Origin: Maylandia zebra | Taxonomy: Eukaryota > Chordata > Actinopteri > Cichliformes > Cichlidae | Length of the DNA stretch: 64,000 bases | Reading direction: 5' to 3' | Assembly (NCBI RefSeq): GCF_041146795.1 | Contig: NC_135174.1 | Span: 2,977,878-3,041,877, forward strand | In this document: piece by piece, positions 30,001 through 33,000 of the stretch | How the letters are laid out: each line of letters begins with the position of its first letter | How positions within the stretch are numbered: the first letter of the stretch is position 1 | Made by a program: the position numbers and the translations under genes | Notes under the pieces: model-generated | Databases searched by the model: none | What the model was told of the DNA's origin: nothing | Seen by the model: only the letters and a program-made list of their open reading frames with translations

Positions 30001-33000
30001 AGGTACAAAGACAGTCCTGTGGGTTGGCCTGGCTGCAGGACAAAGCAGAGAAGCAGTTTTATGGGTTTACCCAAATGAAGAGAGACAGTTCTCGGAGTGA
30101 GCCCGGGGCCCAGCAATGGCCGAGGAGGTGGCCAGTAGGCCTGTTTTGGCAGTCGGTGGCCAGTGATGACAGCCAGCAATACCCAGGTTGGAGACCCTTT
30201 GGAGGGGGTGAATGGCAGCTGGTGATAAAGGTCATGATCATTCAGGGGGGGTTCGGAGGAGGCTGACATCGGCAGAGGAGACCCCTCCAAAGCTTGGTTG
30301 GAGCCCATTATCAATGGTAGGGATGAGAGTCCCCTAGAGGCAGAGCCCATTTTGAGACTGGGCTGTGATGGGGGCTGGCAATGGCATCAGCATCATCAGC
30401 ATGCTGGCCTTCAGCCCACAGACTTTTAATATGTGTAGATCCAAAAATCTAGGTAGAAATTCCAAAAAGCTTCCTAAATTCCTCCTTCAGGTCCTTGGAA
30501 AGGATTGCTATATCTTCTGCATCCATGTTCTGGTTGCCTTGTTCTGTCATCTTAGTGAAGTGCAGAATGTTAGAACCCACATCCAAAATGTGACAGGACA
30601 AGGTTCAAAACATAATGAGAGCCATTTGGTTGAAAAAGACGGAAAAGGTCTATAAATGCAGAGACAAACAGTAAACAGAAATACATGAAACAAAATCCAA
30701 AATAACAGGGAAATACATAAGTAGGCAACAGTGTGATACAGTCAGCTTAAAGTGAAAGACAGGTTATACACACATCGGAGCACATTGAGGGCTAAATTAG
30801 GAAAACAGATCGGTGAGAAGAAAGCAGTGAAACTAAACAGTGATAGGGGAAGTAAAACTATAAGCACAACACAGAAGGCAAAAGACTTCCAAATTAAAAC
30901 AGGAAGTTACTAACCACAGAGACAAAGGTGTGGTAACAGTACATAAGAGGAAACTAAGGAAACCAGAATAAGCAAAGAACCAAATTCTAAAGAACAAACA
31001 AACCAAGAACTGGGTGGAAAACCTAATAGTGTCATGGTCCTGGGTCTTCGAGCTTGGTTCTGGATGTGCTCATTTCTTTGAAATTACAAAAGAGTTGTCT
31101 CTGTATATATTGTTCTCTTGTGCTTCTGAGTTTAGTTATAGTCTCGTGTGTGTTATGTTCTGCTTTGCCTTCCTCGCTTTGTTAGTGGATTCTGCTCAGC
31201 TGTGTTCTCCAGGTGTTTCACCTTTACCCATATCTCATGGGTATTTAAGCCCCCTGTTTCCTTCTGTCACTTGTTGTGATCTTCCCATAGCTGTGTGCCC
31301 TGTCTATTTCTCAGTGTAGTTCTCTAGCTAATGTTCACCAGTATCTGCTTACTTAAGTTCTTTGCATTTTGGTTTGCTGCATGTCCAGGAATAAAGCTGC
31401 CTTTTGAGTTCAGTTCTGTTTCTGAGTCCTGCATATTGGGTCCAATTCTCTGCTCACTACACAGTGTATCATAACAAATAATAAACAAAGATAAAAGAAA
31501 AAAATCTTAAAACTCTCTGTCAGGACCATAACAATCACAAGGTGTGAATATATTTGAATAATTCTTTGCTCACTTTATTTCTTTCTTCATCCTCCAGTCT
31601 CCATCATGGAAGTGGAGTGTGTGCACGAAGGTTGCCAGTCAGAAACATTGCGGCAGATGGTTGGCTCAGTACCTGAAAACCAGTGTTTAACAGTGGTCTT
31701 CAAAGGGTCTCGTAAAAGCCTGGATCTCCTCTGCCAAAGCCAAGAAGAAGCTCAGTGCTGGGCCCGTGGCATCCGTACCCTGCAGGAGAGGATGGACAAC
31801 ATGACCCAGAAGGAGAAACTTGACCAATATCCTTGATTTTTGTGGGGGTGGACATACATCCCTGTTCATTTGGATTTATAGAAGCACTACTTTGTGTACA
31901 TTTAATTATTATTATTATTATTATTTAATTATAATTTGTTGACCACTGGGAACCAAGAGATCCAAACTAGAGAGTTAGCACTGTAAGAGGTAACCACTGA
32001 GACTTCATGTTAAAATACACCATATGGCTCACCAGTGCTTCCTTGACAGTGTCACCTGGATTCATGCTTATATGAGTCGGGCTGACCGAAACCGCGACGA
32101 CAAGATGAGCTACGATGAGGTTCAGATTCTGCTGCAGATGATCAATATTGACTTGAATGACCAGTATGCTCGCAGCCTCTTCCAGGTAGCAGAACACACT
32201 GCTTAATTTAAGTAATTAAAGTCAATCATTTAAATTAAAGCTAACTTTACGGGTTTATAGCCATTCTGTCTGGAGTATTGATTTCCCCTCTTGGCGCGCA
32301 GTGTGGGTTTTTCAGTTATATTGTATACAAATGGTGATGACTTTATTTGGTTAGTACTCAGAGCTTGTGACCATAGGAAAGGGTAGGAACGTAGACTAAC
32401 CAGTAAATTGACACCTTCACATTTACGCTCAGCTCTCTCTTTATTACAGTGGACTGCCATGTAGTCTGTTTGTTGATCTCATATTCCGCACTCCTCTCAC
32501 TTGTGAACAAAATCCTGAATGTCGCCCATAGACATTGCCTGATGAGTGCTAATGACTAAATAGAGTGCACCTGTGTGTAATCTAATGTCAGTACAAATAC
32601 AGCTGCTCTGTGACGGCCTCAGAGGTTGTCTAAGAGAATATTGGGAGCAACAACACCATGAAGTCCAAACAACACACCAGACAGGTCAGGGATAAAGTTA
32701 TTGAGAATTTTAAAGCAGGCTTAGGCTACAAAAAGATTTCCCAAGCCTTGAACATCCCATGGAGCACTGTTCAAGCCATCATTCAGAAATGGAAGGAGTA
32801 TGGCACAACTGTAAACCTACCAAGACAAGGCCGTCCACCTAAACTCACAGGCCGAACAAGGAGAGCGCTGATCAGAAATGCAGCCAAGAGGCCCATGGTG
32901 ACTCTGGACGAGCTGCAGAGATCTACAGCTCAGGTGGGGGAATCTGTCCACAGGACAACTATTAGTCGTGCACTGCACAAAGTTGGCCTTTATGGAAGAG

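What the first reader, a model, noticed from the sequence alone, without database searches (positions are those of the whole stretch)
31827..32055. AT-AC minor-spliceosome (U12) intron in plcd3
The intron starts ATATCCTT, has TTCCTTGAC nine to ten nt before its end, and ends in AC. The exon join restores the conserved LDHWIHAYM without any GT-AG alternative. AT-AC U12 introns are rare and this one is only 229 nt long, sitting between the PH and EF-hand exons. It makes plcd3 output dependent on the minor spliceosome.
Basis: partly seen in the sequence, partly recalled or inferred. Interest (0 to 1): 0.75.

Follow-up and report, generated by a model that had tools for sequence, protein, structure and literature searches.

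The report
Minor-spliceosome intron in fish plcd3
A fish-like phospholipase C gene carries a rare AT-AC type of intron; it looks real by sequence, but it is a shared family feature, since related phospholipase C genes in the same genome keep the same kind of intron at the same codon.

Summary
Intron 31827-32055 (229 nt, phase 2) begins ATATCCTT, has TTCCTTGAC with its A nine nt before the last base, and ends CAC. Joining the exons gives KEKLDHWIHAYM, matching rat PLCD1 KLQHWIHS. 0 of 61 GT-AG and 0 of 32 GC-AG in-frame open pairs spare both exons.

The reading holds too, but this is a family feature. The 9 PLCD-like and PLCH-like genes of this genome whose junction I read on both sides all have a U12-type intron at the same codon and phase: five AT-AC (PLCD3-like pair, three PLCH-like), four GT-AG (PLCD1-like pair, PLCD4-like pair). 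A PLCG-like gene has an intron at this codon with a U2-type start; two PLCL-like genes have none. Other PLC genes were not read. U11, U12, U4atac and U6atac genes are present. Retention would add Gln-Tyr-Pro-stop.

Minor introns in the phospholipase C family, and subtype switching, are in print (PMC6865273, PMC2831892; passages seen). Splicing was not observed. Verdict: real, new member of a known kind, modest interest.

The parts
31598..31826 (+). upstream exon, second half of the PH domain, ending ...KEKLD + CA of the split codon
   Evidence: open frame after CTCCAG; aligned by phmmer to rat PLCD1 chain 1mai (that this chain is the PH domain is recalled)
31827..31834 (+). U12-type 5' splice site ATATCCTT
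   Evidence: RTATCC at the same codon in 9 of 9 PLCD/PLCH-like genes read
31827..32055 (+). AT-AC U12-type intron, 229 nt, phase 2
32039..32047 (+). U12 branch-site element TTCCTTGAC, A at 32046
   Evidence: complementary to GTAAGGAA in the genome's own U12 gene (letters, pairing by eye)
32054..32055 (+). AC 3' splice site
   Evidence: restores LDHWIHAYM
32056..32185 (+). downstream exon, start of the EF-hand region ([22 protein letters not shown]...), followed by GTAGCA

Best explanation
The feature is a genuine U12-type (minor) intron of the AT-AC subtype in a PLCD3-like gene, inherited from an ancestor of the PLCD and PLCH genes. U11 and then U6atac should read ATATCCTT, U12 should pair with TTCCTTGAC, and the minor spliceosome should join CA|C to restore His-Trp between the PH domain and the EF hands. 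If the intron is kept, translation adds Gln-Tyr-Pro and stops, so full-length protein should need the minor spliceosome. Shown: the sequence elements, the codon-exact junction, same-site U12-type introns in the 9 PLCD/PLCH-like genes read, and the presence of the four snRNA genes. Inferred: actual splicing, the retention effect, and AT-AC as the ancestral subtype.
For: Elements and junction. Homologous junction in rat PLCD1. Same-codon U12-type introns in 9 of 9 genes read on both sides. The following intron, taken at the homologous exon end, starts with GT and not RTATCC in 9 of 9 of these genes. 0 of 61 GT-AG and 0 of 32 GC-AG in-frame open pairs spare both exons; the nearest GT-AG pair deletes 72 exonic nt and keeps 6 intronic nt, the nearest GC-AG pair deletes 45 and keeps 6. 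snRNAs above the curated cut-off: U12 127.9 bits, U11 122.3, U6atac 133, U4atac 88.4 and 84.1. In-frame stop on retention in 9 of 9.
Against: No RNA evidence was available. An in-frame AT-AG end at 32049 exists. The branch-to-end distance of 9 nt is the shortest of the nine best-scoring sites (9 to 16 nt). Branch elements are weak (6 of 9 consensus letters) in the two PLCD1-like genes, C18 and C9, and C4, the closest paralog, has ATATCCTG rather than ATATCCTT. The PH-EF parts of other PLC genes (among them one PLCD-like gene on C7) were not found or not looked at.
Confidence: 0.96

Rival explanations
1. The intron is U12-type but uses the AG at 32049 (AT-AG), giving a protein with an inserted Val-Thr, either as the main or as a minor isoform.
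For: The end is in frame, open and spares both exons.
Against: It lies 3 nt after the branch A, against 9 to 16 nt for the ends assigned in the nine genes, and it breaks the HW/QW junction of rat PLCD1 and of the nine genes read. The other PLCD3-like copy (C4) ends in CTACAC.
Confidence: 0.03
2. A U2-type GT-AG or GC-AG intron elsewhere removes this stretch and the AT-AC ends are coincidence.
For: 61 GT-AG and 32 GC-AG in-frame open pairs exist in 31598-32185.
Against: 0 of 61 and 0 of 32 spare both homologous exons. AT-AC ends recur at the same codon in four other genes.
Confidence: 0.01
3. The U12 intron has a regulatory role in PLCD3: slow removal or retention throttles the enzyme in tissues or stages with low minor-spliceosome activity. 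(Compatible with the best explanation, an added claim.)
For: Retention gives an immediate stop here and a stop inside the intron in 9 of 9 genes. U12 introns are reported to be removed more slowly (PMC3584512, passages).
Against: Most introns carry in-frame stops (general knowledge). I saw no retention signal but did not search for one, and the family-wide presence is equally explained by inheritance.
Confidence: 0.2

Closest known systems
U12-type AT-AC introns of vertebrates (about 26% of human minor introns, PMC10639083, passage)
   Same: ATATCCTT start, TTCCTTRAC branch site close to the end, AC end
   Different: no difference found by sequence
Minor introns of the phospholipase C gene family (60% of genes, PMC6865273, passage)
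   Same: same gene family; here present in the 9 PLCD/PLCH-like genes read on both sides
   Different: the passage gives no gene names, positions or subtypes, so I could not match it gene by gene
AT-AC to GT-AG subtype switching and U12-to-U2 conversion (PMC2831892, passages)
   Same: both U12 subtypes, a U2-type start and intron absence are found at one codon of one family
   Different: comparison here is among paralogs of one genome, not among orthologs of many species

Membership tests
U12-type intron, AT-AC subtype | 5' splice site RTATCCTT | tested here: met
   ATATCCTT at 31827, 8 of 8 letters
U12-type intron, AT-AC subtype | branch-site TTCCTTRAC a short way before the 3' end | tested here: met
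   TTCCTTGAC, 9 of 9 letters, A 9 nt before the last base
U12-type intron, AT-AC subtype | AC 3' end that restores the reading frame | tested here: met
   ends CAC; join gives KEKLDHWIHA
U12-type intron, AT-AC subtype | host has U11, U12, U4atac and U6atac | tested here: met
   each over the Rfam gathering score
U12-type intron, AT-AC subtype | removed by the minor spliceosome in cells | not testable with these tools
   no RNA data
phospholipase C delta family | PH, EF-hand, PI-PLC X, PI-PLC Y and C2 domains in order (recalled) | tested here: inconclusive
   PH side matched by sequence to rat PLCD1 chain 1mai; Pfam EF-hand_10, EF-hand_like and PI-PLC-X found, no PH model reported; X-domain exons in the window. 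The Y domain search did not complete and C2 was not searched
PLCD3 proper | orthology to vertebrate PLCD3 | tested here: inconclusive
   the tree separates the C8/C4 pair (100/99) from the C9/C18 and C16/C22 pairs; the names PLCD3, PLCD4, PLCH, PLCG and PLCL rest on recall, PLCD1 on closeness to rat PLCD1

The most novel reading that the evidence does not exclude
One codon of the PLC family preserves, within a single genome, every stage proposed for the decay of U12 introns: AT-AC U12 (PLCD3, PLCH), GT-AG U12 (PLCD1, PLCD4), GT-AG U2 (PLCG) and no intron (PLCL). AT-AC is ancestral and the GT-AG switch happened independently in PLCD1 and PLCD4.
Probability: 0.4. Interest if true: 0.4.

Novelty: new member of a known kind. 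Interest (0 to 1): 0.27.

Why it matters
A gene predictor that allows only GT-AG ends would miss this junction and break plcd3 and its AT-AC relatives at the PH/EF-hand boundary. The family offers one homologous intron in several states, which makes it a convenient set for testing how AT-AC, GT-AG and U2-type versions differ in speed and retention. It also predicts that several phosphoinositide-signalling enzymes fall together when the minor spliceosome fails. None of this overturns current views.

Tried and rejected
GT-AG and GC-AG alternatives: enumerated over 31598-32185, none of 61 and none of 32 spares both exons (introns of 30 nt or more; one search gave the same totals from 40 nt up). 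The GT/GC filter of the narrower first pass was faulty (its test string could not fit the slice examined), so its empty list is not used as evidence. AT-AG at 32049: rejected on branch distance and homology.

Pattern search of the genome for ATATCCTT with a 5-30 nt gap to TTCCTTGAC: 7 matches in 962 Mb (2 for the pattern read backwards), gap too short for most introns, not used.

C7 PLCD-like gene: in 17.5 kb fetched upstream of and including its first X exon, no first EF-hand or PH exon was found with my queries, so it is not among the 9. One locus taken as PLCB-like (C3, 9 kb) gave no useful hit. Further X-domain places (among them C7 at 66.5 Mb, C8 at 16.9 Mb, C13, C15, C16 at 11.7 Mb, C19, C21) were not examined, so nothing is claimed for PLCB, PLCE or the rest.

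PLCG-like C17: only the downstream side was found, a pyrimidine-rich CTGTAG|GTGG end. PLCG-like C20b has a U12-like TTCCTTAAT before its 3' end but a U2-type GTAAAT start; I call the start U2-type and leave the whole intron's type open.

The three PLCH-like genes were weak in the first paralog search (C14 E 0.052, C5 E 0.20 and 0.58, C20 E 0.21); they were accepted because exons and splice sites line up.

Paper searches for PLCD3, PLCD1, PLCD or PLCH together with minor-intron terms found no paper naming these introns (none; one, unrelated by its title; 18 papers, 15 listed, none of the 15 with plcd; none). Two wider searches led to PMC6865273. PMC2846911 was looked at in passages and has no mention of phospholipase or PLC in its main text. 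Supplements could not be read.

Full report
Check of the sequence. The window shows ...CTTGACCA|ATATCCTTGATTTT at 31827 and GTGCTTCCTTGACAGTGTCAC|CTGGATTC at 32055. Joining 31826 to 32056 gives KEKLDHWIHAYM in frame, with the codon CA|C split in phase 2. Rat PLCD1 reads KLQHWIHS at the same place, and rat PLCD1 chain 1mai (the PH domain, recalled) covers the upstream exon. Pfam finds EF-hand_10, EF-hand_like and PI-PLC-X in the joined protein but reports no PH hit. The X domain is matched in three places in the window, 37631-37756, 39741-39902 and 42503-42664 after conversion from genome coordinates; the first is reported with one TAA inside, which lies just past the exon end, in GTAACAG. The Y domain search did not complete, so the gene was not followed to its end.

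Chance and alternatives. In a first-order Markov model of the window, RTATCCTT at a fixed point has probability 4.25e-5, and an exact TTCCTTRAC with its A 8-20 nt before an AC or AG end 2e-5. TTCCTTRAC is found once in the window, on the + strand. Of the in-frame open pairs in 31598-32185, 61 are GT-AG and 32 GC-AG; none spares both exons, and the least damaging remove 72 and 45 exonic nt. Among 71 AT-AC and 50 AT-AG pairs, 6 and 3 spare both exons; only 31827/32055 keeps no intronic letters. The AT-AG end at 32049 inserts Val-Thr but is only 3 nt from the branch A. The exon limits used in this count rest on the match to rat PLCD1 and to the paralogs.

Paralogs in the same genome. The window lies at G000:C8:2977878-3041877 in a 962 Mb assembly of 63 contigs (that it is a fish is recalled from the gene content, not tested). 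One search listed 25 matches of the PH-EF query. Nine PLCD-like or PLCH-like genes, the window included, were read on both sides of the junction. The 9 have an intron at the same codon, phase 2, that starts RTATCC (8 of 9 RTATCCTT; C4 has ATATCCTG). Five are AT-AC: C8 (window, 229 nt), C4 (837), C14 (368), C20 (216), C5 (115). Four are GT-AG: C22 (7450), C16 (193), C18 (592), C9 (84). Best branch-site matches in the last 45 nt are 9 of 9 consensus letters in C8 and C20, 8 in C4, C22 and C14, 7 in C16 and C5, and 6 in C18 and C9. As an internal control, the next intron, taken at the homologous exon end, begins GTAGC, GTCAG, GTGAG, GTAAG, GTTGT, GTGAG, GTTAG, GTACA and GTAAG in the nine genes, none RTATCC.

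Other relatives. A PLCG-like gene (C20b) has a 98 nt intron at the same codon and phase with a U2-type GTAAAT start and a U12-like TTCCTTAAT near its end. A second PLCG-like gene (C17) shows a pyrimidine-rich CTGTAG end at the same place; its upstream exon was not found. Two PLCL-like genes (C11, and C4 at 29.07 Mb) read through the site in one long open frame (881 and 848 aa). A PLCD-like gene on C7 was not resolved, and the further X-domain places among the 66 were not examined.

Tree. A maximum-likelihood tree of 12 rows and 199 columns groups C8 with C4 (100/99), C9 with C18 (100/99) and C16 with C22 (92/90); the first two pairs are sisters (87/89) within a PLCD clade (98/97). The three PLCH-like rows are unresolved against the PLCL pair (41/46), the PLCG row is long and less than half filled, C16 has only part of the columns, and the root is drawn at the midpoint, so the deep order is unsure. 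With AT-AC in PLCD3-like and PLCH-like genes and GT-AG in PLCD1-like and PLCD4-like genes, two changes are needed whether AT-AC is kept and lost twice, or lost once and regained. I prefer the first because AT-AC to GT-AG is the direction that PMC2831892 describes on the way to U2-type introns and for a fish Syntaxin-6 intron (passages); this is inference. Names other than PLCD1 are recalled. C9 and C18 are closest to rat PLCD1 (47.6 and 47.3% identity over 126-129 aa, against 39.5 and 39.8% for C8 and C4; C16 and C22 44.2% over 52 aa only).

Machinery and expected outcome. The genome has one U12 match (127.9 bits), one U11 (122.3), one U6atac (133) and two U4atac (88.4 and 84.1), each over the curated cut-off. 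The U12 gene holds GTAAGGAA and the U11 gene starts AAAAAGGGCTT; by eye these can pair with TTCCTT.AC and with TCCTT of the intron. Kept in the mRNA, the intron adds Gln-Tyr-Pro and a stop; in the 9 genes retention reads QYP and then stops inside the intron. Slow removal of U12 introns is reported (PMC3584512, passages), so an effect on output is plausible, but it is not shown here.

Known or new. PMC6865273 (passages) lists phospholipase C among families rich in minor introns, 60% of genes. PMC2831892 (passages) reports 36 clusters with both subtypes and a GT-AG to AT-AC ratio of 565:204. PMC10639083 (passages) gives about 26% AT-AC among human minor introns and cites 91% conservation of human minor introns in zebrafish. 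My searches for PLCD1, PLCD3, PLCD or PLCH with minor-intron terms found no paper that names these introns, but only open-licence main texts were searched and supplements were not readable. I therefore treat the intron as a new instance of a known kind; that it is already listed in minor-intron databases is likely but unchecked.

Noticed in passing
window 32634-33657 (+): A Tc1/mariner-like transposase, spread over several reading frames, lies in the next plcd3 intron (label by recall from the translations).
   Followed up: no
window about 34134-36443: Pieces of gag-pol-like retroelement frames seem to lie in the same intron (label by recall from the translations).
   Followed up: no
L051, G000:C20:22103001-22112000: PLCG-like gene: 98 nt intron at the homologous codon with a U2-type GTAAAT start but a U12-like TTCCTTAAT near its end, possibly a remnant of a U12-to-U2 conversion.
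   Followed up: partly
L049 and L053, G000:C7:17184501-17202000: A further PLCD-like gene whose PH and first EF-hand exons were not found in the 17.5 kb fetched; they may lie further off, be diverged or be lost.
   Followed up: partly
L041, G000:C9 near 21694276-21694358 (-): The PLCD1-like U12-type intron is only 84 nt long.
   Followed up: no
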